Below, piece after piece: positions 774 through 44,908 of a stretch of 50,697 bases of DNA. This DNA is from a virus: IMG/VR virus record IMGVR_UViG_3300010148_003999, positions 1-50,697 of that record. One strand, given 5' to 3'. The stretch's first letter is position 1. Each line of letters starts with the position of its first letter. A program made the position numbers and the translations under genes. The notes beneath the pieces are model-generated. The model was not told the DNA's origin. It did not search any database and saw only the letters and a list, made by a program, of their open reading frames with translations.

Positions 774-786
774 TTTTTTTTATTTT

Positions 787-1848: not shown

Positions 1849-1854
1849 AGTTAT

Positions 1855-2711: not shown

Positions 2712-2732
2712 ATTTAAAACTAATTACAAATA

Positions 2733-3470: not shown

Positions 3471-3488
3471 TATTAATAATTAAAATTT

Positions 3489-9357: not shown

Positions 9358-9364
9358 ATTAGTA

Positions 9365-12045: not shown

Positions 12046-12047
12046 AA

Positions 12048-12803: not shown

Positions 12804-12804
12804 A

Positions 12805-13455
12805 TTATAAATTATAATTCATTAATATTTCGTCATAGTAAAATACATTATATTCTTTTTTCATTAATTCACCAGCAAATTTACAATCTGCAGCTCTTCT
12901 ATCGTATTGATATTTTACTTTTTCTGATATTTCTTTTTTTATTGTTATGGGTCCATGTGCTATATTACATTCTGGGTTAGCACGAAGTTGGCCACCACCC
13001 AAACCATTATCAGGTTTCCACCAACACTTAAAAACACTAGAAGTTTTAAAATCTAAAGATTCAAATTTTTTATTATTTGTTTGATAACTGTGTACCAAGG
13101 CATCACAATTATAGTTATTAAAAACTTCTTTTGTCAGTTCAATTCTTTGTGGGTGAGGAATATCATCAACATCAAAAAATTGAATTATGTCCATATTTGA
13201 TTTTTTAGCTCCTTCATTTCTAGCTTTACCTTCTGAGTGTCTATCTAAAGAATTTGTGGTTACAACAGGTATATTTTTACCATTTATTTCTATGCTATCT
13301 ATGTCTAGTAATAAGTTTTCTTTCATTCCACTAGAAGATATTATTAATTCATCAGGAGCCACAGTTTGTTTTTTACACTCTTCTAATAAATTATTTAATA
13401 AATGATAATCACCATCATAACAAGTTATACATAAAGATAATGTTTTATTTCTCAT
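12805..13455 (-). CDS. GT2-like glycosyltransferase
   Basis: A 216-residue GT-A protein. LSLCITCYDGDYHLLNNLL (residues 6-24) is the first strand and helix. EGKARNEGAKKSNMDIIQFFDVDDIPHP contains the ARNxG helix and the DVDD acidic cluster that binds metal and nucleotide. It is short but complete for the catalytic domain. It overlaps the GalE-like gene by 11 bp. It likely acts in the same glycan pathway. Confidence 0.82.
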   Translation of the reverse strand: MRNKTLSLCITCYDGDYHLLNNLLEECKKQTVAPDELIISSSGMKENLLLDIDSIEINGKNIPVVTTNSLDRHSEGKARNEGAKKSNMDIIQFFDVDDIPHPQRIELTKEVFNNYNCDALVHSYQTNNKKFESLDFKTSSVFKCWWKPDNGLGGGQLRANPECNIAHGPITIKKEISEKVKYQYDRRAADCKFAGELMKKEYNVFYYDEILMNYNL

Positions 13456-14362: not shown

Positions 14363-14363
14363 A

Positions 14364-14987
14364 TTAATTATCTTTTTTACATAAACATTGATAGGACCTC
14401 TCCTCAGTATCTATATTCACAGGTGAATCATATTGTATGTCATAACAAGAAAATCCGTATTTAACCAGTAATAAATTTTTTATAATATCCCAGTCTTCAT
14501 CCATATGACACTCAACCAATAAATGTTTTACCTTTGACACAACACCCGATAAACCTTCTAAAACTTTTATTTCAGCACCTTCTACATCAATTTTAATTAA
14601 ATCAATACTATCTTCTTTGTTTAGTAGAGTATCTAACCTAATACTTTCTATTGAACCTATTTTATCGTTAATATTTCTATTCGCGTCAAAGCCTAATATA
14701 TTTGTAGTTTGTGTGTGTCCACCATCGTGATAGAAATCCACAACACTATTGGTATCAGAAACAGCTTTATTTAATAGAATAACATTTTTATTTACATTAA
14801 AGGTATTTTGTAATCGACTAAAAGTAGAAGGATTTAATTCTATAGAATATATTTTACCCTCATCCTTTATAATTTGGGTGAAAAAATTAGTGTAAACCCC
14901 AAGATGTGCACCGACATCTACAACTACACTACTTTCATTTAAAAGTTTACTTAGATACTCAAAATTTTTTACGTCATGATGGTCCAT
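14364..14987 (-). CDS. FkbM-family methyltransferase
   Basis: A 207-residue SAM-dependent methyltransferase. Motif I is VVVDVGAHLGVYT (about residues 19-31), with the ribose-binding glutamate in IYSIELNPSTFSRL. The FkbM hallmark DLIKIDVEGAEIKVLEGL follows. Family members O-methylate sugars in capsules, glycolipids and antibiotics. Upstream lie 38 bp of AT-rich sequence, one of the few visible gaps in the operon, with no clear promoter. It probably caps or modifies a sugar in the glycan made here. Confidence 0.88.
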   Translation of the reverse strand: MDHHDVKNFEYLSKLLNESSVVVDVGAHLGVYTNFFTQIIKDEGKIYSIELNPSTFSRLQNTFNVNKNVILLNKAVSDTNSVVDFYHDGGHTQTTNILGFDANRNINDKIGSIESIRLDTLLNKEDSIDLIKIDVEGAEIKVLEGLSGVVSKVKHLLVECHMDEDWDIIKNLLLVKYGFSCYDIQYDSPVNIDTEERSYQCLCKKDN

Positions 14988-15025
14988 ATTAAAATATATG
15001 TATTATTTACAATATCGTAAATATT

Positions 15026-15853
15026 TTAATCAAGAAATTCGGAACCAAAAGTTACTAAGTCTTTGTTATAATTTTCTTTTATAAATTTTAAATAACCTTT
15101 ATGTTCACACATTTTATCATACACACCACAATCAAATTTAATATTACCTAATATTTCTTTTGGTGTTTTAATTGACATGAAATCTAAGTTGTTAACTACG
15201 GGGTCATATCTTTGATTTATAAATGTAACTGGGTGATTGTATTTAACATATTCATAATGTTTGTACCATAATTGTTTTAAGGCATAAAATTTGGTGTTAA
15301 TTGATTGTAGATGAATTACACCGTAATCTTTGGTGAATTTTTTTTGTAAATTTACTTGTGGTGTTCTAGGTGTGTGATATTTCCACAAAGCTAAATTAAA
15401 TTTACCTGTATGTTTAAGGGGTAAAATAAAACTACGATGATTATTTATATAAGATGGGTCATTTCTAGTTTCGTTTAAAGTATTGTTAACTACGTTATAC
15501 CAGTATAGATAAGTGTCTTCTGTTTCATAACTGTTAATAACATCGGTAAAATTATTGACTAGGTTATCCGATAATAATTCATCACAATCCATAGCGATAA
15601 CATGAGTAGCACCATTATCTCTACTATACTCTAACATTCTAGACCTGTTATGAGACTCGTTGAACTCTTCTAAACCGTCATTAATTATAACAGCTCTATC
15701 ACCTAAATGATTTTTTATAATATTAACCGTATCATCTGTAGAATTATCATTATAAAATATGAATTTTTCTATAGGATAATTAACCCATGTAGGTAATAAT
15801 TCAGTTAACAATAACTCTTCATTTTTTGTCATTACATTAGCGTGTACTCTCAT
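15026..15853 (-). CDS. GT92/GT2-like glycosyltransferase
   Basis: A 275-residue protein starting MRVHANVMTKNEELLLTELL, where VMTKNE and the following FIFYNDNSTDDT match the first and second strands of GT92-like and GT2-like enzymes. ATHVIAMDCDELL gives a DxD cluster (DCDE). HTGKFNLALWKYHTP and GVIHLQSINTK resemble the late acceptor-side region and its metal-binding histidine. The gene overlaps the upstream transferase by 4 bp and is followed by the 38 bp gap before FkbM. Donor and acceptor unknown. Confidence 0.8.
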   Translation of the reverse strand: MRVHANVMTKNEELLLTELLPTWVNYPIEKFIFYNDNSTDDTVNIIKNHLGDRAVIINDGLEEFNESHNRSRMLEYSRDNGATHVIAMDCDELLSDNLVNNFTDVINSYETEDTYLYWYNVVNNTLNETRNDPSYINNHRSFILPLKHTGKFNLALWKYHTPRTPQVNLQKKFTKDYGVIHLQSINTKFYALKQLWYKHYEYVKYNHPVTFINQRYDPVVNNLDFMSIKTPKEILGNIKFDCGVYDKMCEHKGYLKFIKENYNKDLVTFGSEFLD

Positions 15854-16545
15854 AGTTTTATATTGTGTAAATTATTGTATACATAGTCAGTAAAATACGC
15901 ATCATCATCTAATATTTTATCGTCACCATCATAGGCTTGTCCTATGAAGTGTTTTGGGTCTCTTTTAAATTTATATGGATGAGCAGGACCAAAACGATTA
16001 GTTAATATTTCATCATGTACAAAAGAAGAGTCCTTAATTAAAGGCCAAATTTTTTCTCTTAAAAAGTTTTGGTCAACTTGCCAAAAATCACCTTTTACAT
16101 AATCAGATATTAATTCGTTTATATTAGTTAAAACATTACATTTAACACCCCACATACCACCTAAAATTTCAGTGGAATGATAAGGGTGGTCTCGCATTAT
16201 ATGAAAACCTTTATCACTCTTTAACCATTCATCTACGGCATGTGATTCTCTACTAGTTAATCTACTATCTGTATCTCGTGACAACATAACATCAACCGAC
16301 TTATCGGCCGCAGCAGAAAAACGCCAAAACATACCAGTCCAATCTCCCATTATACCCATTTCAACTATCTCCGTATTATCAAAAGAATTTAATTTTTCTA
16401 GTATTTTAGACGGTATACAATTAGACACATAATATCTACAAATCCAATCAGGATATACTAATTGAGCTAATTCAGCATTTCGTACAGCACCGATAGTATA
16501 CCGTGGGTTATCCCCCCACAAACTAAAACAAATTACTTTTTTCAT
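15850..16545 (-). CDS. Putative glycosyltransferase with DTD motif
   Basis: A 231-residue protein that starts KKVICFSLWGDNPRYTIGAV. A mid-protein DVMLSRDTDSRLTSRE segment gives an acidic DxD-like cluster with flanking Arg, and DHPYHSTEILGGMWGVK follows. This combination occurs in uncharacterised glycan-locus proteins of viruses and bacteria and looks like a GT-A transferase. It overlaps both neighbours by 4 bp. I cannot assign a CAZy family. Confidence 0.6.
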   Translation of the reverse strand: MKKVICFSLWGDNPRYTIGAVRNAELAQLVYPDWICRYYVSNCIPSKILEKLNSFDNTEIVEMGIMGDWTGMFWRFSAAADKSVDVMLSRDTDSRLTSRESHAVDEWLKSDKGFHIMRDHPYHSTEILGGMWGVKCNVLTNINELISDYVKGDFWQVDQNFLREKIWPLIKDSSFVHDEILTNRFGPAHPYKFKRDPKHFIGQAYDGDDKILDDDAYFTDYVYNNLHNIKL

Positions 16546-17237
16546 TTATATAATTTTCTTATTTCAGTGTCTTGTCTAACATGTTCTTGAAATGTAGAAC
16601 GGTCAGAACTAACACCTTTTGGGTTATCATAGTAAGTTCCTATGTAATCATTTAATTTTAAAAATTTACAACCTTTTTTTGATAATCTTAACCACATTTC
16701 ATAATCACCGGAAATAGTATACTTTGGGTTAAATAAACCATTATTAATAATTGTAGATTTTTTTAGTATTGGAAATGGACCAAATATACAATTAGCTAGA
16801 AGTGTTTGATGGGTATAATTAGGCCAATTTTGTATCCCCTTTATAACTGTATGTTTTTCATCACCACAAACTAAACTATTAGCATAAGTTATATCTATTT
16901 CTGGATTTTGAATCATTGTTTCGTGTAGTGTTAACAAAGCTCCTGGAAATAACCTATCATCAGTATTAAAATTTATAACAAATTCACTATCACTATTTTT
17001 AATAGCCATATTCCAAGCTTCGTAAATTGTAATTCTAGTATTATTTTCTATTACTTTTTTAGTTATACCACTTCTAAATTTATAATTTTTAATTGTTTTT
17101 AGTGAATGGTCGTTAGAGTTAGCATCTACAAATATAATAGTAAAGTTATCTAAAAGTTGGTTGTTAACTGATTCCAAATAACCATCAATCCACCTATCTG
17201 AATTATAATTTGAACATAAAACTGTTAATGTTTCCAT
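16542..17237 (-). CDS. GT2 glycosyltransferase
   Basis: A 231-residue GT-A enzyme. LTVLCSNYNSDRWIDGYLESV (residues 4-24) and FTIIFVDANSNDHSL are the first two strands. EFVINFNTDDRLFPGAL has the NTDD acidic cluster. ISGDYEMWLRLSKKG is the ED/DY-type motif that carries the catalytic base in GT2 enzymes. Family assignment is good; sugar specificity is not visible. It overlaps the downstream gene by 4 bp and lies 3 bp after the two-domain transferase. Confidence 0.87.
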   Translation of the reverse strand: METLTVLCSNYNSDRWIDGYLESVNNQLLDNFTIIFVDANSNDHSLKTIKNYKFRSGITKKVIENNTRITIYEAWNMAIKNSDSEFVINFNTDDRLFPGALLTLHETMIQNPEIDITYANSLVCGDEKHTVIKGIQNWPNYTHQTLLANCIFGPFPILKKSTIINNGLFNPKYTISGDYEMWLRLSKKGCKFLKLNDYIGTYYDNPKGVSSDRSTFQEHVRQDTEIRKLYK

Positions 17238-17240
17238 ATT

Positions 17241-18689
17241 TTATACGAATGAATTAAATGAAGTATTATTATTTGTTAAAGGTGTATAAATTGATGATTC
17301 TTCGAATACATTAGCTGGAATAATCTTATTTTTAACTAGTATTTTATTGTGTAGAGATTTTGTGTCTTTATTAGCTAATGTTGACACGGTACCTTCACTT
17401 TCATGATGAAAATAAATAAACATAGCCTGAGGAATTCTTTTACCTATATAACCAAATTGCATCATTCTTAACCACATATCATAATCTTCCCACCCTTTTA
17501 AATTTTCATCATACCCCCCTACAGAGTCAAAAGCTTCTCTACTAAACATAGAACAATTAACAATAAAAGGCCCCTGTACTAACCTATTTTCACTCCATTC
17601 AGGTCTCTTTTCAACACCTCTCATCTGTCCTTCATGAATAGTATCACAATATATAGGACTATATTTATTATTTTGTTGTATTACATTAACACAACTCTCC
17701 ACATACATGGGATGGATTAAATCGTCCGAATCTAAAGGTAAAATATATTTTCCTTTTGATGATTTAATTCCTTCATTCCTTGCTTTTGAAGGCCCACCAT
17801 TTTCTTGGAATATTATTTTAGTATTAGGTAAATTTAATGTTTTTAATTTTAAACGAGTAAATTCATCTGTAGAACCATCATCTATTATAATAATTTCTAT
17901 ATTTTTATAACTTTGATTAAAAACAGAAATAAGTGCTCTATCTAAGGTTTTACCATAATTATAAACAGGCATTATAATAGATACTAAAGGTTTATCCTTT
18001 TTATATTTAAGTTCTGGTTGAACTAAACTAACCATAAGTGGTAAACTATCATTATATTTTTCACTAAATATAATTCTATTTTTTTCCCACTCTTCGTTGG
18101 TTTGTCCTATAGAAAGATGAGTGATATCAATATTAGATATAACACCTATCTTTACGTCTTTTAAAAAGTTTTGTACACAAAAATTTAAGTCATAAAAATG
18201 AAAACCTTTTACATTTTCATCAAAATCTACCTTAATATTTTTTTTATTTACAGCAAAAAATAATCCATCTACTAGCACTGAGGGTAATATATTAGTACCA
18301 AATCTAGGATTATAAGTTGACAACCATCTTTTATCTTCATGTTCGTGATATACTTGGCCCATCATTTCAGAAGGTATTTCCCACCATTTTCCAGATTTAG
18401 GTAAATACCTACAACCAGCAACACCTAATATACCGTATTCTGTTTTTTGAAAGTGTTTAAGTAATTTTCTACCCCAGTTTTTAGTATCAAATTTTATATC
18501 ATCATGACAAAATAAAACAATATCATTTTTAGAATCCTTTAATCCCATGTTGTAGACTTCAGTTAGTGAATATTTACCTGGATTTTCATAAGGTAAAATT
18601 TCTATTTTGTGTACACCTGAAGTGGATTTTATTAAATCTACAAAATCTTTATTTATTTTTTTTGAACTAAATACTACTGATAATGACAT
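17241..18689 (-). CDS. Two-domain GT2 glycosyltransferase
   Basis: A 482-residue protein with two GT-A domains. Domain 1 (about 1-220) has NDIVLFCHDDIKFDTKNWG and an FYDLNFCVQNF segment, a divergent GT2-like pattern. Domain 2 (about 235-460) is classic: VSIIMPVYNYGKTLDRAL, IIIDDGSTDE, GGPSKARNEGI, LPLDSDDLIHP and GWEDYDMWLRM. Such fusions can add alternating sugars or extend a repeat unit. It is the first glycan gene after dUTPase (5 bp gap), so transcription may enter the cluster through dut. Confidence 0.88.
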   Translation of the reverse strand: MSLSVVFSSKKINKDFVDLIKSTSGVHKIEILPYENPGKYSLTEVYNMGLKDSKNDIVLFCHDDIKFDTKNWGRKLLKHFQKTEYGILGVAGCRYLPKSGKWWEIPSEMMGQVYHEHEDKRWLSTYNPRFGTNILPSVLVDGLFFAVNKKNIKVDFDENVKGFHFYDLNFCVQNFLKDVKIGVISNIDITHLSIGQTNEEWEKNRIIFSEKYNDSLPLMVSLVQPELKYKKDKPLVSIIMPVYNYGKTLDRALISVFNQSYKNIEIIIIDDGSTDEFTRLKLKTLNLPNTKIIFQENGGPSKARNEGIKSSKGKYILPLDSDDLIHPMYVESCVNVIQQNNKYSPIYCDTIHEGQMRGVEKRPEWSENRLVQGPFIVNCSMFSREAFDSVGGYDENLKGWEDYDMWLRMMQFGYIGKRIPQAMFIYFHHESEGTVSTLANKDTKSLHNKILVKNKIIPANVFEESSIYTPLTNNNTSFNSFV

Positions 18690-26989: not shown

Positions 26990-27020
26990 TTGATTACTTA
27001 AATTTCTTTACCTATCTTTG
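26990..27020 (+). promoter_or_regulatory. Bacteroidota-type promoter of the DNA polymerase gene
   Basis: TTG at 26990-26992, a 20 bp spacer, then TATCTTTG at 27013-27020, fitting the Bacteroidota primary-sigma pattern TTTG-N19-TAnnTTTG apart from one extra spacer base and an A before TTG. The ATG is 11 bp further on, so the leader is very short. The host polymerase probably reads it early in infection. Confidence 0.75.
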
Positions 27021-27031
27021 TATGTAATCAC

Positions 27032-29776
27032 ATGCAAGAATTAAATAAAGAAAATATGACAGAAAAAGCTACTCCAGAAGAGATAGAAGCGTTTTTACTT
27101 GGTAACGACCCAGAAAAATATATTGTAGCCTTAGAGTATGGGTGGAGAAGTAGTAAAATATATAAGATAAAGGAAGACCCAAAAAAAGGTAAAATAATTG
27201 AAACTGATACATTTATCCCTTTTTGTTGGGTTGGTGATTTGAGTAAAAAGAATTTTTATAACGGTAGTAAACAGGCCCAAAAAGAGGCTATATCTAAACA
27301 CGGTATTTTAATAGAAAAATTACATAGTGGTGATGATGAAAGATTAAATAATGGTTTAACTTATTTAATTAAAACCATAAAAACATATAGAGATTTAGTA
27401 AGTTTTTTTAGACAGGGTGGTATAAATCCTTGGGATAGTGACAATAGAGACGCAATTATGATTCTACCACCAATAGAACAATACTTGGTACAAAAAGAAA
27501 AAAGGTTGTTTAAAGGTTTTGAAGAATATGACAATATACATAGATTTGTTTTTGACTTAGAGACTACAGCATTAAATCCAGAAGATGGTAGAATTTTTAT
27601 GATTGGTATGAAAGATAATAGGGGGTTTGAAAAGGTTATAGAAATTGGTGAAAGTGAGACTGAAGAAGTTGAAGCTATATATGAATTTTTTGAAACTATA
27701 AATAATTTAAGACCAACAATCATAGGTGGGTACAACTCATCTAACTTCGACTGGAACTGGTTATTTAAAAGAGCAGAAATACTTCAGATGGATACCACAC
27801 AATTTAAAACACTAAATCCTAATGAAGGATATAAAATTAATGATGGTGTTTTAAAATTAGGTGCAGAAATTGAGGATTATAAACAAATAAAAATTTGGGG
27901 TTATAATTCTTTGGATATTGCACATGCTGTTAGGAGAGCACAAACAATTAATTCTGAAATAAAAAGTTGGGGATTAAAATATATAACACAATTTTCTAAA
28001 TCAGAAAAACCTAATCGAGTTTATGTTCCTGGGGATAAAATCGCTTCTACGTATAGAGAGAATAAGGAGTTTTATTTAAATGTTGAAAATGGAAAATATA
28101 AACCTGTTGGTGGGGAAGGACTGTTTGATATAGACAAGAAATTTCCAAAAGTATATAAAAAGGTTGGTGGTGCAGAAATAGTAGAACAATACCTAATGGA
28201 TGATTTATGGGAAACTATGGAAGTAGACGGACAATTTAATCAAGCATCATTTTTACTAGCAAGTATGGTACCAACATCATACGAAAGAGTGTCAACAATG
28301 GGTACAGCTACTTTATGGAAAATGTTAATGTTGGCGTGGTCTTATCATAAAGGATTAGCGGTACCATCAAAAGACTCTAAAAGGCCTTTTGTAGGTGGAC
28401 TTTCTAGACTTGTAAAAACAGGTTACTCCACTAATGTACTAAAGTTAGACTTTAGTTCACTTTACCCATCAATACAATTGGTTCACAACGTGTTTCCAGA
28501 ATGTGATATTACAGATGCTATGAAAGGTATGTTAAAGTATTTTAGAGATACTAGAATTATGTATAAAAACTTAGCCTCTGAATATTACAGTAAAGATAAA
28601 AAGAAATCGGAGTCTTATGGTAGAAAACAATTACCTATTAAAATTTTTATAAACTCTATGTTTGGTTCTTTGTCAGCACCACAAGTTTTTCCTTGGGGCG
28701 ATATGAATATGGGTGAAAAAGTAACCTGTACAGCTAGACAGTATCTAAGACAGATGGTTAGATTTTTTATGGATAAAGGTTATGACCCATTGGTGATGGA
28801 TACGGATGGTGTTAACTTTTCTTGTCCTTTAGATGTAGAGGATAGGTCTTATGTTGGTTTAGGTAATAACGAATTAGTTAAAAAAGGTAAGGAATATAAG
28901 GGTAGTGAGGCTGATGTTGCTGAATATAACGATTTATTTATGAGAGGTGAGATGGGGTTAGATACAGATGGTCAATGGCCTTCTTGTATTAATGTAGCTA
29001 GAAAAAATTATGCGTTATTAATGTCTAGTGGAAAAGTTAAATTAACTGGTAATTCTATTAAGTCTAAAAAAATACAAGGATATCTAGAAGAGTTTATAGA
29101 TAAAGGACTTAGAATGTTATTAGAAGGTAGAGGTGGTGATTTTGTAGAATATTATTATGAATACTTACAAAAAATCTACGATAGAGATATTTTACTTGCA
29201 AAAATAGCTAATAAGTCTAGAGTAAAACAAACAATAGAATCCTATAAAAAAAGATGTACACAAAGAACAAAAGCCGGAAATTTAATGGCTAGACAAGCAC
29301 ATATGGAATTAGTTATAGCTAATAATTTACAAGTATCTTTAGGGGATACGATTTACTATGTGAATAATGGTAAAGCTATGTCACATGGTGATGTACAAAG
29401 AAAAAAGAAAAAGGATGGGACAGAAGAAATTGTTTTAAATTCCTATCTAATTTCCGAAAATGATTTAGAAAATGGTATGAAAGGTGAATACAATGTACCT
29501 AGATATATAAACACTTTTAATAAACGTGTAGAACCATTATTAGTTTGTTTCAAAAAAGAAGTGAGAGACAGTTTATTAAAAAAGAAACCAGAAGATAGAG
29601 AATACTACACTAAAACTCAATGTACATTAATTAATGGAGTACCTAGGAAAGAAGGTGACCAAGACTCATTAGAGGAAATATTAACATTATCACCAGAAGA
29701 AAAAGATTATTGGATAAAAATGAATCTGAGTGAAAACTATTTTATGGAAGAATTAGGAATTTTTGAGTCCGTCTGA
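27032..29776 (+). CDS. Family B DNA polymerase with 3'-5' exonuclease
   Basis: A 914-residue replicative polymerase, close to T4 gp43 (898). Exonuclease motif I is FVFDLETTAL (about residue 172), Exo II is GGYNSSNFDWNWL, and Exo III may be YLMDDLWE. Polymerase motif A is LDFSSLYPSIQ (about 470), motif B KIFINSMFGSL (about 536), and motif C VMDTDGVNF (about 588), so both catalytic metal-binding sites look intact. Motif C has Gly after DTD where Ser is common. Start is the ATG at 27032; ATG at 27056 is an alternative. It carries a host-type promoter and its 3' end overlaps the convergent fibre gene by 24 bp. Confidence 0.95.
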   Translation: MQELNKENMTEKATPEEIEAFLLGNDPEKYIVALEYGWRSSKIYKIKEDPKKGKIIETDTFIPFCWVGDLSKKNFYNGSKQAQKEAISKHGILIEKLHSGDDERLNNGLTYLIKTIKTYRDLVSFFRQGGINPWDSDNRDAIMILPPIEQYLVQKEKRLFKGFEEYDNIHRFVFDLETTALNPEDGRIFMIGMKDNRGFEKVIEIGESETEEVEAIYEFFETINNLRPTIIGGYNSSNFDWNWLFKRAEILQMDTTQFKTLNPNEGYKINDGVLKLGAEIEDYKQIKIWGYNSLDIAHAVRRAQTINSEIKSWGLKYITQFSKSEKPNRVYVPGDKIASTYRENKEFYLNVENGKYKPVGGEGLFDIDKKFPKVYKKVGGAEIVEQYLMDDLWETMEVDGQFNQASFLLASMVPTSYERVSTMGTATLWKMLMLAWSYHKGLAVPSKDSKRPFVGGLSRLVKTGYSTNVLKLDFSSLYPSIQLVHNVFPECDITDAMKGMLKYFRDTRIMYKNLASEYYSKDKKKSESYGRKQLPIKIFINSMFGSLSAPQVFPWGDMNMGEKVTCTARQYLRQMVRFFMDKGYDPLVMDTDGVNFSCPLDVEDRSYVGLGNNELVKKGKEYKGSEADVAEYNDLFMRGEMGLDTDGQWPSCINVARKNYALLMSSGKVKLTGNSIKSKKIQGYLEEFIDKGLRMLLEGRGGDFVEYYYEYLQKIYDRDILLAKIANKSRVKQTIESYKKRCTQRTKAGNLMARQAHMELVIANNLQVSLGDTIYYVNNGKAMSHGDVQRKKKKDGTEEIVLNSYLISENDLENGMKGEYNVPRYINTFNKRVEPLLVCFKKEVRDSLLKKKPEDREYYTKTQCTLINGVPRKEGDQDSLEEILTLSPEEKDYWIKMNLSENYFMEELGIFESV

Positions 29777-36176: not shown

Positions 36177-39100
36177 ATGGCAGACGGTAATAAGGTATTT
36201 GTTTCTCCTGGTGTATACACATCGGAGAAAGATTTAACATTTGTAGCACAAAGTGTTGGTGTTACAACACTAGGTTTGGTTGGTGAAACTTTAAAAGGAC
36301 CAGCCTTTGAACCAATATTTATATCATCTTATGATGATTTTGTAACTAGATTCGGTGGAACGTCACCAGAATTGTACGTAGATTCACAAATCCCTAAATA
36401 TGAGTTAGGGTATATTGCAAAATCATACTTAAGTCAATCAAATCAACTATTTGTAACTAGAGTACTAGGTTTAAGTGGTTATGATGCTGGACCTTCCTGG
36501 TCAATTCAGACTATAGGTCAGTTAGAACCATCAGGTCTTGAACATTCGTATTCAGCTTTGACTTCTACATCAGGTAATACAGCTTTACCTTTTTTCATCC
36601 CACTTACAGGGGATAGTTATTATTCTGGTTCTACTGTTGGTGCCGATGCTTTTACAACTGCTGCCCTCTCAACACCGTTTTGGACAAGTATACCTTCAGA
36701 ATTAACAGGTATTGATTTTGGTTCTTGGTCTGAAACAGGACAAACAATCACATTAAATGACGGCTCAACACTTTCATCATTTAATCAATCATTTTTAAAT
36801 TGGGCACAGGACTCAATTATACTTAGTAGTGACACTCAATTTAACGACGCTTTATCCTCTGGTGATACTGGTGGATGTACATTTGGTGTATCTCCGTGTA
36901 TACCAGTAGCCTTAGACGGTACTGTATACCAATATGGATGTATACCACAATATCTAACTAATACAGCAACTGGTATAACAACAGATTCGTTATCTGCTTT
37001 TACATTTGCAAATTCAACCACAGGCTCTAGTTCTTCAATAACAAATGTTTTATCAACTAATTGTGCAGACCTAACTTCTTATGAAAACGACCCTTGGTAT
37101 TATGGTTTATTTGAATATACTGGAAGTACTCAATGTTGTACGGGTACAACATATAGTGGGTTATCATACCAACTATATTCAAGTGGATATACTTCAGGAC
37201 AAGGAGTTCCAATGGAACAAGCTACTGGTACAACACTTGATAGTACTGGTGGTACAATTGTTGTTTTATCTGGATATGCTGTATTCGACATTATAAATTA
37301 CCAAGGAGTAACAGCTAATACTGAGTGGGATGGTATGGACATACTAACATTTAGGTCTAGAGGTTTAAGTTCTCTAGGTAGTGGTGGTCCAGTATACGCA
37401 ATAAGTGGAAATACAGTAGGAAATGTAGAATTTGATTGTAGTGGTTCTTATGAATCTGTACTTGAAGACCCATTTGCTACATTTGGAATTAGTGCAAGAA
37501 CTGATGAGGGTAACGTTTATACTTTTGAAGCTTCTATGTCTAATACGGCTCAAAATTTTGCACCTAGAGTATTTGGTAGAAGTCCGTTTGATAAAAAAGA
37601 AGTTGAGGTTCCTATCTTTGTTGAGGAGGCTTATCCAACACTATTAAATATAGGAAGAAAATTAGGAAAAGTTAGGGGACTTCAATGTTGTCTACAATTC
37701 CTACCAAGTGCAAGAGCTACAGTAAACACGAACACTATAGCTTGGTACATGAATCAATTTGAAACACCTGAAACACCTTATATTGTATCTGAATTACAAG
37801 GTAGTGATGTATTTAGATTGTTTAAATTTGTGTCTATATCAGATGGTTCAGCAGCTAATAGAGAATATAAAGTTTCTATAGTTAATCTTTCTTTTGAAAG
37901 AGCAGAATTTGATATCCTAGTTAGAGACTTTTTTGATACTGACGCAAACCCAGTAGTTTTAGAGAAATTTACTAGATGTAGTCTAGACCCAACAAAAGTA
38001 TCATTTGTTGGTAGAAAAATAGGTACGTCAACTGGAGAATTCGAGTTAAAATCTAAATATACAATGATTTACCCAACAGAGGCTTTACTAGATGGAACTT
38101 TTACTGGTTCTTTACCGGCTGGTTTTGAGGGTTATAGATTTAGAAGATATGGAAATTGTGGTGTAAACCCAAAAATTATATATAAAACAAAATATTTTAA
38201 TCCTGGTGAAATAGTATTTGACCCACCATATGGTTCAGCTACAGGTAATAATGTAATAAGAAGTGGTGGTGACAAAGTTAGTAAAGTTTATTTAGGTATT
38301 TCCGATAGTACTGGAGCTGGATTTGACGCTGATTTCTTTGATTTTAAAGGTTATATCCCACCAACTAATATTTGTACTGGAACCGCTGGTTCACAGTGGG
38401 AGGTTGTAACTAAAGGATTCCATATGGATTCTGGAGCAACTGTTGTTATTGGGGGTGTTGGTACTTACCTAGACTGGTCATCTACAACATTGGCTGGTGA
38501 GTCTATTTTTGAAGTTGGAGCTGGACAATTTAACACAGAACCTACTTTAAGTACCGAACCATATAAATCACTGAGGTCACGTAAATTTACAATTGCACCA
38601 AGTGGAGGTTTTGATGGCTTTGATATCTATAGAAAAACAAGGTCTAATACTGACGATTATAGAATGGGACTTACTGGTTTCCTAAACGGAGCTTGTACAA
38701 GTGCTGATTTTCCTACGGCAACTGGTGATGGTTCATTTAAAAAATTAAGTACTAGTGAAGCTAATACAGACTATTTCGCTTATTTAAGAGGTATAAATGA
38801 GTTTAGTAATCCAGAGTCTGTAGATATAAATGTATTTGCAACACCAGGAATTGATTATGTTGATAATTTAGGTTTAGTAAATGAATCTATAGACATGGTA
38901 GAAACTGATAGAGCTGACTCTCTTTACATTACAACAACACCAGACTTTAATATGTTCGTCCCAACAAATTCAGACCCAGTCAATCAAGTAACACCAGATG
39001 AAGCTGTGGATAATATAGAGGATTCTTTAATAGATTCTAACTATACAGCAACTTATTATCCTTGGGTTCAGATAAGAGACGCGGCTAACAATAAACAAGT

Positions 39101-39656
39101 ATACATACCACCAACTGCGGAGGTAATGAGAAATATAGCTCTAACAGATAATATATCATTCCCATGGTTCGCATCAGCTGGTTATACAAGAGGTTTAGTT
39201 AACGCTGTGAAAGCTAGAAAGAAACTTACGTTAGATGAAAGAGATACATTATACGTTGGTAGATTGAACCCAATCGCAACATTTAGTGATACAGGCCCAA
39301 TTATCTGGGGTAATAAAACTCTACAAATTAGAGAGTCTGCTTTAGATAGAATTAATGTTAGAAGATTATTACTACAAACTAGAAAATTAATATCAGCGGT
39401 AGCAGTAAGATTAATATTCGAACAAAATGATGATGTGGTTAGACAACAATTCTTAGACTTGGTAAATCCAATACTAGATTCTATTAGAAGAGACAGAGGT
39501 TTAACAGACTTTAGAGTTGTTCTTTCAAATGACCCAGAAGAAATAGATAGAAATGAAATGAATGGTAAGATATATATTAAACCAACAAGAGCTTTAGAAT
39601 ATATATTCGTTGAATTCCTAATAACACCTACTGGGGCCTCTTTTGAAGATATATAA
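36177..39656 (+). CDS. Tail sheath protein
   Basis: A 1159-residue contractile sheath. The start VFVSPGVYTSEKDLTFVAQSVGVTTLGLVGETLKGPAF is the sheath signature (S-P-G-V-Y, then G-x-V-G). The last 170 residues (RDTLYVGRLNPIATFSDTGPIIWGNKTLQ, then NVRRLLLQTRKLISAVAVRLIFEQND) match the conserved C-terminal domain that wraps the tube and links subunits. It is much longer than T4 gp18 (659); the extra mass lies in the centre (about 100-400 and 700-950) and is Gly/Ser/Thr-rich and probably surface-exposed. It carries its own late-type element and precedes two acidic proteins. Confidence 0.93.
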   Translation: MADGNKVFVSPGVYTSEKDLTFVAQSVGVTTLGLVGETLKGPAFEPIFISSYDDFVTRFGGTSPELYVDSQIPKYELGYIAKSYLSQSNQLFVTRVLGLSGYDAGPSWSIQTIGQLEPSGLEHSYSALTSTSGNTALPFFIPLTGDSYYSGSTVGADAFTTAALSTPFWTSIPSELTGIDFGSWSETGQTITLNDGSTLSSFNQSFLNWAQDSIILSSDTQFNDALSSGDTGGCTFGVSPCIPVALDGTVYQYGCIPQYLTNTATGITTDSLSAFTFANSTTGSSSSITNVLSTNCADLTSYENDPWYYGLFEYTGSTQCCTGTTYSGLSYQLYSSGYTSGQGVPMEQATGTTLDSTGGTIVVLSGYAVFDIINYQGVTANTEWDGMDILTFRSRGLSSLGSGGPVYAISGNTVGNVEFDCSGSYESVLEDPFATFGISARTDEGNVYTFEASMSNTAQNFAPRVFGRSPFDKKEVEVPIFVEEAYPTLLNIGRKLGKVRGLQCCLQFLPSARATVNTNTIAWYMNQFETPETPYIVSELQGSDVFRLFKFVSISDGSAANREYKVSIVNLSFERAEFDILVRDFFDTDANPVVLEKFTRCSLDPTKVSFVGRKIGTSTGEFELKSKYTMIYPTEALLDGTFTGSLPAGFEGYRFRRYGNCGVNPKIIYKTKYFNPGEIVFDPPYGSATGNNVIRSGGDKVSKVYLGISDSTGAGFDADFFDFKGYIPPTNICTGTAGSQWEVVTKGFHMDSGATVVIGGVGTYLDWSSTTLAGESIFEVGAGQFNTEPTLSTEPYKSLRSRKFTIAPSGGFDGFDIYRKTRSNTDDYRMGLTGFLNGACTSADFPTATGDGSFKKLSTSEANTDYFAYLRGINEFSNPESVDINVFATPGIDYVDNLGLVNESIDMVETDRADSLYITTTPDFNMFVPTNSDPVNQVTPDEAVDNIEDSLIDSNYTATYYPWVQIRDAANNKQVYIPPTAEVMRNIALTDNISFPWFASAGYTRGLVNAVKARKKLTLDERDTLYVGRLNPIATFSDTGPIIWGNKTLQIRESALDRINVRRLLLQTRKLISAVAVRLIFEQNDDVVRQQFLDLVNPILDSIRRDRGLTDFRVVLSNDPEEIDRNEMNGKIYIKPTRALEYIFVEFLITPTGASFEDI

Positions 39657-39677: not shown

Positions 39678-40256
39678 ATGAAATTTACAAAAAAAATATT
39701 GGTTGAATCTTTAAATAAGAAATCTACTGGTAATAAAACTTTTACTAATGGTAAAAAACAAAATGTAATTATTAGTGAAGAACAGTTAGAAAGAGTTCTA
39801 TCAATTATTCAAGAACAATGGCAAGAAATAAAATTAGAAGAAGACGCTAAACCAGACTTTTTAGATTTAGATGGTGATGGGGACAAAAAAGAAACCATGA
39901 AAAAAGCAGCTAAAGATAAAAAGGAAATGGAAGAAGGTAAGAAAAAAGACCATGATGGTGATGGTGATATAGATTCTGATGATTATTTAGCAGCAAAAGA
40001 TAAAGCTATTAAAAAGGCAATGAAAAAAGATGTAAAAGAAGATAGTGAAGGTGAGGAAACATATAACTATGGTGAAGATGAAGGTGCAGATGAAAAACAT
40101 ATTAAGGATTTAGAAAAAGATATGGCTTATGATGAAGACCACGAAGATAGACGTGAAAAAGGAACTCACTTTGAGTCTGAGGATGAAAAAGAAAAATTAA
40201 TTCAAGAAGACATTAAAAGAATGAAACAAATAATAAAACCAATAGCAAAAATTTAA
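39678..40256 (+). CDS. Acidic protein with two EF-hand-like loops
   Basis: A 192-residue, very acidic protein. Two calcium-binding-type loops stand out: DLDGDGDKKETM and DHDGDGDIDSDD (about residues 58-69 and 91-102). The N-terminus MKFTKKILVESLNKK is amphipathic with an LVE site resembling T4-type prohead targeting and cleavage sequences, and NVIISEEQLERVLSIIQEQ repeats a module found in neighbours. The C-terminal third is Glu/Asp-rich. It lies 21 bp after the sheath gene and 5 bp before another acidic gene. Calcium-binding or scaffold is inferred from motifs. Confidence 0.7.
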   Translation: MKFTKKILVESLNKKSTGNKTFTNGKKQNVIISEEQLERVLSIIQEQWQEIKLEEDAKPDFLDLDGDGDKKETMKKAAKDKKEMEEGKKKDHDGDGDIDSDDYLAAKDKAIKKAMKKDVKEDSEGEETYNYGEDEGADEKHIKDLEKDMAYDEDHEDRREKGTHFESEDEKEKLIQEDIKRMKQIIKPIAKI

Positions 40257-40261
40257 TAACT

Positions 40262-41350
40262 ATGGAAAAAAATATTTTAAATGAGTTAAATAGAGCTCGT
40301 GAAATAATGGGGTTAGATTTAATTAGTGAAGAACAATTAAATGAAAATATAGGTAATGGAAATGGCCAAAATTTCGGTCTAATGGGTACACCTACAGCAA
40401 AATATAAAGACCTTACAGAAAAAGAAGATATGGAAGAAAAAGACATGGAAGAAGGTCATAAAGAAGACCATGTTGAAGGAAAAGAAGACGAGGTAAAAGA
40501 AAATGGTAAAAATCCACCTATGGAAGGTGTTGAAGAGGGTAAGGTTGTTAAAGAACAAGAAGAGGAAGAAGAAGAAGAGGGGGAGGAAGAAGAAGTAGTA
40601 GACCCTAATGCTGTAGTTACAAGATATAAAAGAGTATTATTCGGTCAAGATAATGTAAATATAGGAGCTGAACTAGTCTACAAATATAACAAACAAAAGC
40701 AAAAACCAGTAAAGGGTAGTGCGATTGTAAGATGGGCAGATTTTGGTGACCTTATTTCTGATAGGGATAAACGTAAACCAGTAAAAGACTGGAGATATGA
40801 TTATAATAAAGATAGGCAAATGTACGATACATTAGCAAACCAATACCCAAAAAAGTACAAGAGTGGAATTTCTACAATATTAAAGAGAATAGTAGCAAGG
40901 AGAGCCGAAGAGTTAGGTGTTGATGTGGGTGATTTGAATCAGTTATTTGCTTCATTCTCAGAATTTGACCCATCACGTTACAAAGTAAGAACAAGTGAAA
41001 GAGCAGGTAGTTCCAAAAGAAGTGATGGTGAGAAAGGAAGTTATATAGGTTATCAGTTGAATAAAAGTAAAAGAGAAAATGAACAAGATGCACCAGACAA
41101 GTTTAGTAATTTTGTTTTAACATACATGCCAAAAGGTGGTGACCGACAAACAGTATATTTTTATAAAAATGGTAACGTTGAGGGCTCAAGTAGCCGTTGG
41201 GAACAAATGGTACAGGGGGTTGTAGATAGAAATGAAAAATATGAGTTATGTCAAGCATTACCAGATGAACTAAAAAATTCTAAAAACTGGTCAAAAACTA
41301 GTAGTAATGTTCGTGGAAGTTATAATCGTTCAAATTCAATAAAATGTTAG
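40262..41350 (+). CDS. Acidic N-terminus, putative virion protein
   Basis: A 362-residue protein. The N-terminus (EKNILNELNRAREIMGLDLISEEQLNE) shares the ISEEQL module with the previous gene. Residues about 55-115 are Glu-rich (a run of glutamates near 100-113). From about 120 to the end the protein is basic and folded-looking (VVTRYKRVLFGQDNVNIG, GISTILKRIVARRAEELGVDVG). Acidic tail plus basic domain suggests a processed head or tail protein. It shares a leader with no late-type element of its own, so it is probably read with the gene at 39678. No family recognised. A terminator follows 20 bp later. Confidence 0.6.
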   Translation: MEKNILNELNRAREIMGLDLISEEQLNENIGNGNGQNFGLMGTPTAKYKDLTEKEDMEEKDMEEGHKEDHVEGKEDEVKENGKNPPMEGVEEGKVVKEQEEEEEEEGEEEEVVDPNAVVTRYKRVLFGQDNVNIGAELVYKYNKQKQKPVKGSAIVRWADFGDLISDRDKRKPVKDWRYDYNKDRQMYDTLANQYPKKYKSGISTILKRIVARRAEELGVDVGDLNQLFASFSEFDPSRYKVRTSERAGSSKRSDGEKGSYIGYQLNKSKRENEQDAPDKFSNFVLTYMPKGGDRQTVYFYKNGNVEGSSSRWEQMVQGVVDRNEKYELCQALPDELKNSKNWSKTSSNVRGSYNRSNSIKC

Positions 41351-41370: not shown

Positions 41371-41401
41371 AAAAAACTCCCTTTTTAGGGAGTTTTTTTT
41401 T
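41371..41401. terminator. Bidirectional terminator between convergent genes
   Basis: Stem CTCCC / GGGAG (41377-41381 and 41388-41392), extended by A6/T6 pairing, loop TTTTTA, then a T run to 41401. The A run on the left gives a T run on the minus strand, so it can end both the tail operon and the exported-protein gene. Confidence 0.85.
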
Positions 41402-41846
41402 ACAAGATAATTGAACGTAATTTATTTTCTTTATTGATTCCAAAATCTATATAGTTATTTACACCATACATATTTGTTACTTTAACTCTGAACCACACGC
41501 CCCATTTACAACAATCTTTTTCTATTACGGTTACTGTAGTAGGTAAGTAATCACAAGACCTATTGATTGTTGGTGCAAACCACTCTTCTATAGCTTCAGA
41601 CACACTAAAGTCATCATCAAGTGTCCCTAAACCAGATAACACATAAACTTCACTACAAGACAAATCTACTAATTGGTTTACTATAATAGTATCTTCACCA
41701 TAAGTATTGTATAAACCCTCAACAACTTTAACAACTTCATTCATTTTTATTAAATAATCTTTTTGTGAATATGGAAAATCAGAGTTTTGTGATTTAACAG
41801 AAAAACTAGTTAGTAAAATAAGTAAGGATAAGAATAAATTTTTCAT
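41400..41846 (-). CDS. Exported protein with signal peptide, probable moron
   Basis: A 148-residue protein beginning KNLFLSLLILLTSFSVKSQNS, a clear signal peptide whose end (SVKSQ) is typical of flavobacterial secreted proteins. The mature part is small, with several cysteines (CSEVYVLSG, SCDYLP, DCCKWGVWFRVKVTN) and probably periplasmic. It is antisense inside the late tail operon, ends in the shared terminator, and has its own host-type promoter (41888-41918). That combination suggests cargo expressed independently of the lytic program. I do not recognise the family; superinfection exclusion is one option. Confidence 0.75.
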   Translation of the reverse strand: MKNLFLSLLILLTSFSVKSQNSDFPYSQKDYLIKMNEVVKVVEGLYNTYGEDTIIVNQLVDLSCSEVYVLSGLGTLDDDFSVSEAIEEWFAPTINRSCDYLPTTVTVIEKDCCKWGVWFRVKVTNMYGVNNYIDFGINKENKLRSIIL

Positions 41847-41887
41847 TTTTTTTATTTTTAGTGGTTAGAATTCGTTTAATTATAGTA

Positions 41888-41918
41888 CAAAGATAAGAAA
41901 TTTTTTTTAAACTACAAA
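41888..41918 (-). promoter_or_regulatory. Bacteroidota-type promoter of the exported protein
   Basis: Minus-strand TTTG (41918-41915), exactly 19 bp spacer, TATCTTTG (41895-41888), a perfect match to TTTG-N19-TAnnTTTG. The ATG of the exported protein lies 41 bp downstream of the element. Confidence 0.85.
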
Positions 41919-41935
41919 GTTATTTCGTTAACATT

Positions 41936-42508
41936 TTAATTTTTTTTAAATTTTAGTTTTGAGTAGTATCTACAGTTGTACCCATTTATGTTTTCATATG
42001 ATTCTTGTACGTGTATCATTATTATTTTGTTCTCAAAATCCAATATTTCGTATAAAATAGGTCTCCCAGACCCACCTAATAGTAGATAAGAACCAACAAG
42101 AGGTTCTGTTATTGTCATGTTATTGTGTGTTACAGACAAACCATAAGGTTGTAAAGTATCACCATCCAATGTAAAATGTCCCATACCTGGTACATTATCA
42201 GGTAAATAAAAACACCAAGTAGTAACATTTTTAATTAGGTCTTCAAACTCATACATACTACTATCATATCTTAAACTACTACTATCACTAATAGTAAAAT
42301 GATTTGTCATCTCTATTTCATCTGTTTCTAGATTCTCTAAGTACATTTCACCATCAACCAATAGCCAACAATCATCTATAAAATAATCATCAACGTAAGG
42401 TACCGGATTTTGTGTTGTCGGGTACGTATTTTCACAAGGAATTATTAAGGTTTCTTTTTCACAAGAAACTAATAATATAACACAAAGTAATTTTAATAAT
42501 TTTTTCAT
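41936..42508 (-). CDS. Lipoprotein, probable moron
   Basis: A 190-residue protein with KKLLKLLCVILLVSCEKETLI: a lipoprotein signal peptide with a VSC lipobox. The acidic residues right after the cysteine (CEKE) resemble the export signals that take Bacteroidota lipoproteins to the cell surface, so surface display is possible. The mature part is beta-rich and polar (HFTISDSSSLRYDSSM, GSYLLLGGSGRPILYEIL, IMIHVQESYENINGYNC). A perfect host-type promoter lies 4 bp upstream of the ATG, so its mRNA would be nearly leaderless. Beside another exported protein, it may alter the host surface, for example to block other phages. Confidence 0.8.
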   Translation of the reverse strand: MKKLLKLLCVILLVSCEKETLIIPCENTYPTTQNPVPYVDDYFIDDCWLLVDGEMYLENLETDEIEMTNHFTISDSSSLRYDSSMYEFEDLIKNVTTWCFYLPDNVPGMGHFTLDGDTLQPYGLSVTHNNMTITEPLVGSYLLLGGSGRPILYEILDFENKIIMIHVQESYENINGYNCRYYSKLKFKKN

Positions 42509-42512
42509 AATA

Positions 42513-42543
42513 CAAAGATAACTAAAAATAGTGAATAAACAAA
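42513..42543 (-). promoter_or_regulatory. Bacteroidota-type promoter of the lipoprotein
   Basis: Minus-strand TTTG (42543-42540), exactly 19 bp spacer, TATCTTTG (42520-42513), a perfect match to TTTG-N19-TAnnTTTG. The ATG at 42508 is 4 bp past the element, so transcription probably starts at or near the start codon. Confidence 0.88.
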
Positions 42544-42552
42544 ATTAATTTG

Positions 42553-42560
42553 TATTTATT
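42553..42560 (+). promoter_or_regulatory. Putative late promoter element (TATTTATT variant)
   Basis: Sequence GTATTTATTGTATATGGG; the element ends 4 bp before the ATG at 42565. It parallels the site at 24347 and implies a leaderless transcript. Confidence 0.45.
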
Positions 42561-42564
42561 GTAT

Positions 42565-43425
42565 ATGGGAAGAAACATTATTATAACACCTAAACAATTA
42601 AGTATTTTTAAGTCTTTAATTAAAGAAGAATCAACAGGTAAAAATGTTAGAGCTTATTCTTTTGATTGGGACGATAATATTCTTAAAATGCCGACCACCA
42701 TAAAAATGTTAAAGAAGACAAATGGTAATTGGAAACCTGTCGATGTAGGTACTGAAGACTTTGCGTTTTTTAGAAATAATACTATGTACAAATTAGACGA
42801 TGGAGCTTTTGATAACTTTATAGACGATGAGGCATTTATAAAAGACCTAGAAAAAGCTTTAAATAATAAATCTTATGCACCATCATTTAATAAGTTTAAG
42901 GAAGCACTTATTTACGCAAATCCAATATCAATCATAACAGCTAGAGGTCATAAACCAGAAACACTTAGAAAAGGAATGGACCTAGTCGTATCTTATACTT
43001 TTACTGAAAATGAATTAAATGATATGATTGATAATATCCAACAAGAAACACCTGAATTAGATGGTGTGGACGCTGAAACAGTATTAAAAACTTATTTAGA
43101 TAGTCATGAATATCATCCAGTAACTTCAGAGTCTTTTATGGGACAGTTTGGTTTAGATGGTGGTTCTGCTATAAGTCCAGAAGAAAATAAAAAAATAGCA
43201 TTAAGAGACTACGTAACAAAAATTGTTAGTAAAACTAAAGAAATGGTTAATACAGATTACAATAAATTATCTGTTGGGTTTAGTGATGATGATTTAGGAA
43301 ATATAAATGCTATTGTAAGATTTATAAAAAATGTATTACAATCAGAGTTTCCTGATGTTGATTTTGTTGTTTACGACACTTCAGAAGGTGGAATGAATAA
43401 AATTATATTAAAACAGTTAAATTAA
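42565..43425 (+). CDS. HAD-like hydrolase in the tail module
   Basis: A 286-residue protein from the ATG at 42565; a TTG at 42550 is in frame but less likely. RAYSFDWDDNILKMP supplies Asp34, Asp36 and Asp37, the HAD motif I region; PISIITARGHKPETLR gives the motif II threonine and a downstream Arg; LSVGFSDDDLGNI supplies motif IV acids. The N-terminus IIITPKQLSIFKSLIKEES repeats the amphipathic module seen in neighbours. HAD enzymes act on phosphate esters, but inside a tail operon this may be an adapted structural or maturation factor. Confidence 0.72.
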   Translation: MGRNIIITPKQLSIFKSLIKEESTGKNVRAYSFDWDDNILKMPTTIKMLKKTNGNWKPVDVGTEDFAFFRNNTMYKLDDGAFDNFIDDEAFIKDLEKALNNKSYAPSFNKFKEALIYANPISIITARGHKPETLRKGMDLVVSYTFTENELNDMIDNIQQETPELDGVDAETVLKTYLDSHEYHPVTSESFMGQFGLDGGSAISPEENKKIALRDYVTKIVSKTKEMVNTDYNKLSVGFSDDDLGNINAIVRFIKNVLQSEFPDVDFVVYDTSEGGMNKIILKQLN

Positions 43426-43491: not shown

Positions 43492-43980
43492 ATGGCTGAC
43501 TTATTAATGAAAATGCCTATACCTTATGAACCAAAGAAAAAGAATAGGTTTATTTTAAGATTTGATTCATCTTTGGGGATTAATGAATGGTATGTAGAAA
43601 GTACTTCTAGACCACAAGTAACAATTAATTCTGTGGAAGTACCGTTTCTTAACACGTCTACGTATGTTGCGGGAAGATTTGTTTGGAACACCATAAACGT
43701 AACTTTTAGAGACCCAATTGGACCATCCGCTGCACAAGCACTTATGGAGTGGGTTAGATTACACGCAGAGTCAGTAACAGGTAGAATGGGGTATGCAGCA
43801 GGATACAAAAAGAATATAGACTTAGAATTATTAGACCCAACAGGTGTTGTTGTAGAAAAATGGATAATGCAGGGAACATTCCTTACAGATGTTAATTTTG
43901 ATAGTTTAGGATATAGTGATGATGGGTTAGCAACAATTTCAGCCACGTTGCGACCAGATAGATGTATCTTAGTTTACTAA
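43492..43980 (+). CDS. Tail tube protein, gp19-like
   Basis: A 162-residue protein that stacks as hexamer rings inside the sheath. NRFILRFDSSLGINEWYVESTSRPQVTIN is the diagnostic start of the T4 gp19 family, followed by VTFRDPIGPSAAQALMEWVR, a conserved strand-helix pair, and the end strand VEKWIMQGTFLTDVNFDSLGYSDDG. Length matches T4 gp19 (163). It is read from its own late-type element and followed by a terminator, which may explain high, separate expression. It sits before the chaperone and tape-measure genes, as in most tailed phages. Confidence 0.93.
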   Translation: MADLLMKMPIPYEPKKKNRFILRFDSSLGINEWYVESTSRPQVTINSVEVPFLNTSTYVAGRFVWNTINVTFRDPIGPSAAQALMEWVRLHAESVTGRMGYAAGYKKNIDLELLDPTGVVVEKWIMQGTFLTDVNFDSLGYSDDGLATISATLRPDRCILVY

Positions 43981-44146: not shown

Positions 44147-44908
44147 ATGTTGCAAGATAATTTAAAACCAGACACAGAAACAATGTTACCGTACGACATG
44201 GTAACACTACCTTCAGAGGGTATCTTCTATAAAAGTAAGAAAAAAAGTGTAAAAGTAACTTATTTAAATGCCTCTGATGAAAACCTACTAGCATCACAAT
44301 CATTACAAGGTAGTGGTGAACTAGTTAACCAACTAATAACTAGAAAAATATTAGATAAGGACATTAATGTTGTAGACATGCCTGAGTGTGATAAACAAGC
44401 TATTTTAGTTTTTTTAAGAAATACAGCTTTTGGTTCTGAATATAAAGTACAATTAACTGACCCAAAAACAGAAGAACTGTTCGAAACAAGTATAGATTTA
44501 TCAATATTAAAAACTAGAGATATAGGTGTCGAAACCGATGAAAAAAACGAGTTTGAGTTTTATTTAGAAAAATCCAAGAAAAAAGCAAAGTTAAAATTCT
44601 TAACCCCAACAGACGAGGAGGAACTTAGAAAAATTGATGAAAAACACAAAAATGACCCTATAAATCCTTTTATGACCAAACAACTAGAAAAAATGTTAGT
44701 AGAAATAGATGGTGTTAGAGATAGAATGACAATAGCACAATTTATTCAAACAATGCCTATAAAGGACTCACAAGATATTAGAAAAATTGTTAGAAATAAT
44801 ACTCCAGCATTAGATTTAAATGCTACCGTAACTACACCCTCAGGAGAAGAAATGAAAGTTGGTATTTCATTGGGTGTTGAGTTTTTTCGTCCTTTCTACG
44901 GGCTATAG
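44147..44908 (+). CDS. Tail assembly chaperone, upstream part (gp26-like)
   Basis: A 253-residue protein between the tube and tape-measure genes, the usual place for tail assembly chaperones. The start YDMVTLPSEGIFYKSKKKSVKVTYLNASDENLL resembles the LPSxG-x-(F/Y)-Y domain of T4 gp26-like proteins, and the rest is helical and charged. It stops at a TAG at 44906 in the middle of a conserved-looking region; the continuation lies in the +1 frame (next entry). The preceding 120 bp are very AT-rich and contain only a weak promoter-like TATTTAAA. The short product is probably one of two made. Confidence 0.75.
   Translation: MLQDNLKPDTETMLPYDMVTLPSEGIFYKSKKKSVKVTYLNASDENLLASQSLQGSGELVNQLITRKILDKDINVVDMPECDKQAILVFLRNTAFGSEYKVQLTDPKTEELFETSIDLSILKTRDIGVETDEKNEFEFYLEKSKKKAKLKFLTPTDEEELRKIDEKHKNDPINPFMTKQLEKMLVEIDGVRDRMTIAQFIQTMPIKDSQDIRKIVRNNTPALDLNATVTTPSGEEMKVGISLGVEFFRPFYGL

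What the first reader, a model, noticed from the sequence alone, without database searches (positions are those of the whole stretch)
41400..42543. Moron pair: exported proteins inside the tail operon
Two minus-strand genes with signal peptides (one a lipoprotein with an acidic tail after the cysteine) interrupt the plus-strand tail module. Each has a perfect TTTG-N19-TATCTTTG promoter and the pair ends at a bidirectional terminator. They look like independently expressed cargo that alters the host envelope, perhaps excluding competing phages, though no family is recognisable.
Basis: partly seen in the sequence, partly recalled or inferred. Interest (0 to 1): 0.72.

Follow-up and report, generated by a model that had tools for sequence, protein, structure and literature searches.

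The report
Phage early-expressed envelope-protein slot
Inside its late tail-gene block, this phage (probably of a Bacteroidota host) keeps a conserved, host-type promoter facing the other way that switches on exchangeable exported proteins, here an outer-membrane lipoprotein and a second secreted protein, most likely to alter the cell surface early in infection and keep other phages out.

Summary
Two minus-strand genes, a 190-aa lipoprotein (41936-42508) and a 148-aa signal-peptide protein (41400-41846), interrupt a tail operon. Each has a perfect TTTG-N19-TATCTTTG promoter (0 expected by chance), and the pair ends at a bidirectional terminator. 'Moron pair' is only half right. The second gene is a true accessory: it occurs in two near-identical contigs and is absent from the closest other relatives. 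The lipoprotein is a clade gene: 37 contigs (about 46-96% identity, dN/dS mostly 0.04-0.2), always in the same place, and in 37/37 the promoter's -7 box ends exactly 4 nt before the ATG, predicting a leaderless mRNA. In other relatives the same promoter drives different envelope cargo (a beta-barrel secreted family, a CAP-like protein, a small two-TM protein). So the conserved unit is a promoter slot with exchangeable exported cargo. Late genes in the window carry another motif (TATTTATA). The only other host-type promoter sits on the DNA polymerase gene, so the slot is probably early. Known protein libraries, bacterial genomes and cultured phages hold no relatives; the predicted folds are weakly lipocalin/TbpB-like. 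Best function: superinfection exclusion or early envelope modification in the manner of T5 Llp. This is inferred and untested.

The parts
41936..42508 (-). lipoprotein gene (called mA here), 190 aa, lipobox LVSC, Cys16 lipidation site, predicted all-beta mature domain
   Evidence: 23-sequence alignment with invariant S15-C16, C25, W48, GGS-RP motif; dN/dS mostly 0.04-0.2
42513..42543 (-). host-type (Bacteroidota sigma-ABfr) promoter TTTG-N19-TATCTTTG of the lipoprotein gene, 4 nt before ATG (predicted leaderless)
   Evidence: conserved in 37/37 lipoprotein loci with exactly 4 nt to ATG
41400..41846 (-). exported-protein gene (called mB here), 148 aa, signal peptide ending KSQ; accessory
   Evidence: relatives only in two near-identical contigs
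41888..41918 (-). host-type promoter TTTG-N19-TATCTTTG of mB, 41-nt leader
41371..41398 (.). bidirectional intrinsic terminator between the convergent acidic-protein gene and mB
42550..42564 (+). late-type promoter TATTTATT (TATTTATA in most relatives) of the divergent gene, back-to-back with the lipoprotein promoter
42565..43425 (+). divergent neighbour: conserved 286-aa gene with HAD-like FDWDDN motif, constant marker of the site

Best explanation
The locus is a conserved early-expression slot for envelope proteins inside the late tail operon of large contractile-tailed phages, probably of Bacteroidota. Shown by sequence: a host-type promoter sits back-to-back with the late promoter of the next tail-region gene, and the first gene behind it nearly always encodes a protein with a signal peptide, a lipobox or membrane spans. 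In this phage that gene is a clade-conserved lipoprotein, followed by a second exported protein with its own promoter. Inferred: the host RNA polymerase transcribes both on DNA entry, before the late sigma acts; the lipoprotein mRNA is leaderless; the lipoprotein is lipidated and placed in the outer membrane; mB goes to the periplasm or outside. Most likely function: they change or block surface structures used by incoming phages (superinfection exclusion, and protection of progeny from dead receptors) as T5 Llp does. This would explain why the first gene is swapped among unrelated exported proteins while promoter and site stay fixed.
For: Perfect promoters, none in 100 shuffles. In 37/37 lipoprotein loci TTTG-N19/20-TATCTTTG ends exactly 4 nt before ATG; Flavobacterium transcripts start 4-5 nt after the -7 element (PMC6847099). 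The same promoter persists where the lipoprotein is replaced: S1 secreted family (L096, L230, L231, L243, L244), CAP-like (L251), two-TM protein (L029, L093, L245, L112). Nine window genes, including sheath and tube, carry upstream TATTTATA instead; the only other host-type promoter lies before the family-B DNA polymerase gene. In six of seven long contigs (60-156 kb) the perfect promoter occurs once; in L021 (G001) and L115 (G004) it is confirmed to lie at the lipoprotein. Purifying selection. Distances of the lipoprotein track those of the neighbouring gene (Mantel r 0.67, 0/2000 permutations). Phage T5 makes a small outer-membrane lipoprotein early for superinfection exclusion (PMC9586334).
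Against: No homologue of known function, no defence-library match, and no receptor is known. Conservation within a clade is unusual for a fast-evolving exclusion factor. The fold match to lipocalins could equally mean ligand binding. Early timing and leaderless start are inferred from motifs, not from RNA data. Surface exposure is uncertain: C-X-K-E is only part of the lipoprotein export signal (PMC5080379).
Confidence: 0.5

Rival explanations
1. Early host take-over or auxiliary function: the lipoprotein and its partners bind a ligand or a nutrient transporter (lipocalin/TbpB-like barrels) or adjust envelope stress and uptake to help replication, without acting on other phages.
For: Weak structural matches of the lipoprotein and of the S1 family to lipocalin-like and TbpB/NHBA barrels; strong within-clade conservation; early-type promoter shared with the DNA polymerase gene.
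Against: Frequent swapping of unrelated exported proteins behind one promoter fits an arms race better than a fixed metabolic role; fold scores are low (TM 0.3-0.44).
Confidence: 0.25
2. True morons of a temperate phage: the genes are expressed in a lysogen by host RNA polymerase and protect or alter the lysogen (lysogenic conversion).
For: Independent host-type promoters and terminator are the classic moron layout; mB is accessory.
Against: No bacterial genome of 84,980 species carries a detectable lipoprotein relative. The relatives are large contractile-tailed phages carrying their own family-B polymerase, a type that is usually lytic. No integrase was seen in the window ORFs, but integrases were not specifically searched for.
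Confidence: 0.1
3. Lysis-related envelope module (outer-membrane lipoprotein as o-spanin-like or lysis-timing part, with a small two-TM partner in relatives).
For: Lipoprotein plus small two-TM protein in many relatives.
Against: The promoter class is not the late one; the two-TM gene is missing in this phage; the lipoprotein is a 190-aa beta domain rather than a short proline-rich o-spanin.
Confidence: 0.08
4. Virion-associated or assembly proteins that happen to sit in the tail operon.
For: Position between sheath and tube genes.
Against: Opposite strand, non-late promoter, signal sequences, and absence from most relatives with the same tail genes.
Confidence: 0.03

Closest known systems
Phage T5 Llp (and Cor lipoproteins of T1-like phages), superinfection-exclusion lipoproteins
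   Same: Phage-encoded outer-membrane lipoprotein, own promoter, early expression (inferred here), located near tail genes.
   Different: No detectable sequence relation; 190 aa with a beta-barrel-like domain against a small Llp; different phage lineage and host phylum; target unknown; the site holds exchangeable cargo in relatives.
T4 Imm/Sp superinfection-exclusion pair
   Same: By analogy only: early membrane protein of about 80 residues (as the 78-83-aa two-TM protein of relatives) and an exported partner (Imm and Sp features recalled, not tested).
   Different: No PHROG match; the two-TM gene is absent in this phage; genomic setting differs.
Prophage morons (lambda Lom/Bor type)
   Same: Own promoter and terminator, opposite strand inside a late operon, exported product.
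   Different: The lipoprotein is clade-conserved and not found in bacterial genomes; no sign of lysogeny.
Lipocalin-like/TbpB-NHBA barrel lipoproteins
   Same: Predicted all-beta domain after a disordered tether; best fold hits are of this type.
   Different: E-values 0.002-0.05 and TM 0.3-0.4; no Pfam lipocalin match for any of 23 members.

Membership tests
Superinfection-exclusion lipoprotein (T5 Llp/Cor kind) | Lipidated exported protein | tested here: met
   Lipobox and Cys invariant in 23 aligned homologues; lipidation itself untested
Superinfection-exclusion lipoprotein (T5 Llp/Cor kind) | Early expression in infection | tested here: inconclusive
   Host-type promoter, distinct from late motif, shared with DNA polymerase gene; no RNA data
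Superinfection-exclusion lipoprotein (T5 Llp/Cor kind) | Sequence homology to Llp/Cor | tested here: not met
   No PHROG, Pfam or NCBIfam match and no tblastn match in 50,697 phage records
Superinfection-exclusion lipoprotein (T5 Llp/Cor kind) | Blocks receptor and superinfection | not testable with these tools
   needs expression and adsorption assay
Moron | Own promoter and terminator, off-operon strand | tested here: met
Moron | Sporadic presence among close relatives | tested here: inconclusive
   met for mB (absent in L166-L168); lipoprotein present in 37 contigs but replaced in others
Moron | Expressed from a prophage | tested here: not met
   no relatives in bacterial genomes
Bacteroidota sigma-ABfr promoter | -33 TTTG, spacer about 19-21, -7 TANNTTTG without G at N | tested here: met
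   37/37 loci TATCTTTG, spacer 19 or 20
Surface-exposed Bacteroidota lipoprotein (LES) | C-X-K-(D/E)2 after the Cys | tested here: inconclusive
   C-X-K-E in most homologues, second acidic residue missing
Lipocalin | Eight-stranded barrel fold | tested here: inconclusive
   AF2 pLDDT 77.8, all-beta; best viral hits E 8e-5 (unnamed) and 2e-3 (lipocalin-like)

The most novel reading that the evidence does not exclude
A previously undescribed, site-specific locus in large Bacteroidota phages: a fixed leaderless host-type promoter, back-to-back with a late promoter inside the tail operon, acts as a docking slot through which unrelated superinfection-exclusion or envelope-modifying proteins are exchanged, while the promoter itself is kept.
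Probability: 0.4. Interest if true: 0.66.

Novelty: new variant of a known kind. Interest (0 to 1): 0.55.

Why it matters
Superinfection exclusion and envelope control are well studied in coliphages but hardly known in phages of Bacteroidota, which dominate many waters and guts. If right, one fixed and easily found site (divergent from the FDWDDN gene, next to the tail tube) yields a catalogue of envelope-acting proteins. It also marks early and late promoter classes in this phage group, and gives a conserved natural example of leaderless early mRNA in a phylum where short leaders are rare.

Tried and rejected
Sequence families for both proteins and replacements (Pfam, PHROGs, NCBIfam, PADLOC): nothing above cut-off. 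Cultured phages by tblastn: none for lipoprotein, mB, S1 or the two-TM protein. Bacterial genomes with the lipoprotein profile: none. Solved structures by sequence: chance hits only. A common origin of lipoprotein, S1 and mB by profile comparison: no, beyond the signal peptide. The idea that TATAAATA upstream of the lipoprotein is a T4-type late promoter for it was dropped: on the other strand it is TATTTATA, the motif in front of the window's late genes, so it belongs to the divergent gene. Lysis module and virion part judged unlikely because of promoter class and distribution.

Full report
What is there. The window is a 50.7-kb virus contig of a contractile-tailed phage: sheath 36177-39656, tail tube 43492-43980, baseplate hub-like 44147-44908. 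Its tail tube is closest among cultured phages to Microcystis phage Mel-JY01 (42%), Rhodothermus phage RM378 (41%) and Flavobacterium phage immuto (36%). Two of five weak matches in bacterial assemblies are Bacteroidales. With the promoter grammar this points to a Bacteroidota host (inference). Both have exact TTTG-N19-TATCTTTG promoters, the only two in the window, none in 100 shuffles. A terminator at 41371-41398 folds strongly on both strands.

Comparative anatomy. Searches with the lipoprotein, the divergent neighbour and the tail tube brought in about 190 related viral contigs, and a search with the two-TM family a further set. The lipoprotein is found at the same site, minus strand, 56-57 bp from the divergent gene, in 37 contigs, some near-identical, with about 46-96% identity to the window protein. 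It evolves under purifying selection (dN/dS mostly 0.04-0.2, one very close pair 0.64), and its distances track those of the neighbouring gene (Mantel r 0.67). The second protein is found only in two near-identical contigs; the next relatives, L166-L168 (sheath about 94% identical), have the lipoprotein alone. Other members carry, behind the lipoprotein, a secreted family of about 140 aa (S1), a 78-aa two-TM protein, or a CAP-like secreted protein (L012).

The constant element is the promoter. In 37 of 37 lipoprotein loci the -33 and -7 boxes are perfect, the spacer is 19 (15 loci) or 20 (22 loci), and the -7 box ends exactly 4 nt before the ATG. In F. johnsoniae the transcript starts 4-5 nt after the -7 box and 87% of leaders exceed 10 nt (PMC6847099); in B. 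thetaiotaomicron only about 3.7% of leaders are shorter than 10 nt (PMC7366714). A conserved leaderless mRNA is therefore predicted. Three further perfect promoters in one related contig (94 kb) also lie 4 nt before an ORF. The promoter survives where the lipoprotein is absent: it then drives S1 (L096, L230, L231, L243, L244; also 4 nt), a CAP-like secreted protein (L251) or the two-TM protein (L029, L030, L093, L245, L248, L112). In two more distant contigs (L129, L132) the place holds an exported protein with a sub-threshold SprB-repeat match plus a TM protein. In many wider relatives nothing is inserted.

Timing. Nine window genes, including sheath and tube, have TATTTATA upstream, usually 18-26 nt before the ATG (45-46 nt for sheath and tube). 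The divergent gene has TATTTATT/A next to the lipoprotein promoter. Apart from the pair, the only gene with the host-type promoter is a family-B DNA polymerase gene (27032-29776), a typical early gene. In two relatives the polymerase, the lipoprotein and one 177-aa gene share this class. Early expression by host RNA polymerase is thus the best inference; no RNA data exist.

Structure and function. AlphaFold gives an all-beta mature domain for the lipoprotein (pLDDT 77.8) and a well-defined beta barrel for S1 (pLDDT 85.3). The best matches are weak and of the lipocalin/TbpB/NHBA kind. Nothing matches in Pfam, PHROGs, NCBIfam, PADLOC, cultured phages or bacterial genomes. The residues after the lipidated Cys (C-X-K-E) resemble, but do not complete, the surface-export signal C-X-K-(D/E)2 (PMC5080379). 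The best-supported function is early modification of the host envelope, most likely superinfection exclusion, by analogy with T5 Llp (PMC9586334). The analogy concerns how it would work; there is no homology.

Verdict. The anatomy is firm (about 0.9). That this is a dedicated early envelope-protein slot is likely (about 0.75). That its job is superinfection exclusion is plausible, not shown (about 0.5).

Noticed in passing
26990-27020(+) and 27032-29776(+): Family-B DNA polymerase gene with the third host-type promoter (TTGA..TATCTTTG), 11 nt before the ATG; orthologues in G001 and G004 share this promoter class.
   Followed up: partly
window, e.g. 26585(+), 34236(+), 36131(+), 39657(+), 43447(+), 45088(+), 24321(-), 31938(-), 32438(-): Candidate late-promoter motif TATTTATA upstream of nine genes, mostly structural; it is the reverse complement of the T4 late box TATAAATA.
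   Followed up: partly
42565-43425(+): HAD-like (FDWDDN) gene between sheath and tube, conserved down to about 30% identity in uncultured huge phages of 634-735 kb; role in tail assembly unknown.
   Followed up: partly
1-18689(-): Long run of about 20 genes that read as glycosyltransferases and sugar-nucleotide enzymes (GDP-mannose dehydratase-like, GDP-fucose synthase-like, aminotransferases) by eye; may decorate virions or the host surface.
   Followed up: no
39678-40256 and 40262-41350(+): Very acidic repeat proteins with EF-hand/dockerin-like DxDxDG stretches and a shared N-terminal 'LNE..R.REI/EEQL' motif, variable between relatives.
   Followed up: no
L205:1560-1982(-), L205:4377-4904(+): A related phage carries an outer-membrane beta-barrel-like exported protein (sub-threshold OMP_b-brl match, E 3e-4) and a CAP-like secreted protein elsewhere in its genome, so exported cargo also sits outside the slot.
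   Followed up: partly
L129:2677-3678(-), L132:6144-7151(-): Exported protein with a sub-threshold match to the SprB repeat of the gliding adhesin, in the same place between sheath and tube.
   Followed up: partly
36177-39656(+): Tail sheath protein is unusually long (1159 aa); the sheath domains are in the C-terminal quarter, with a long variable insert.
   Followed up: no
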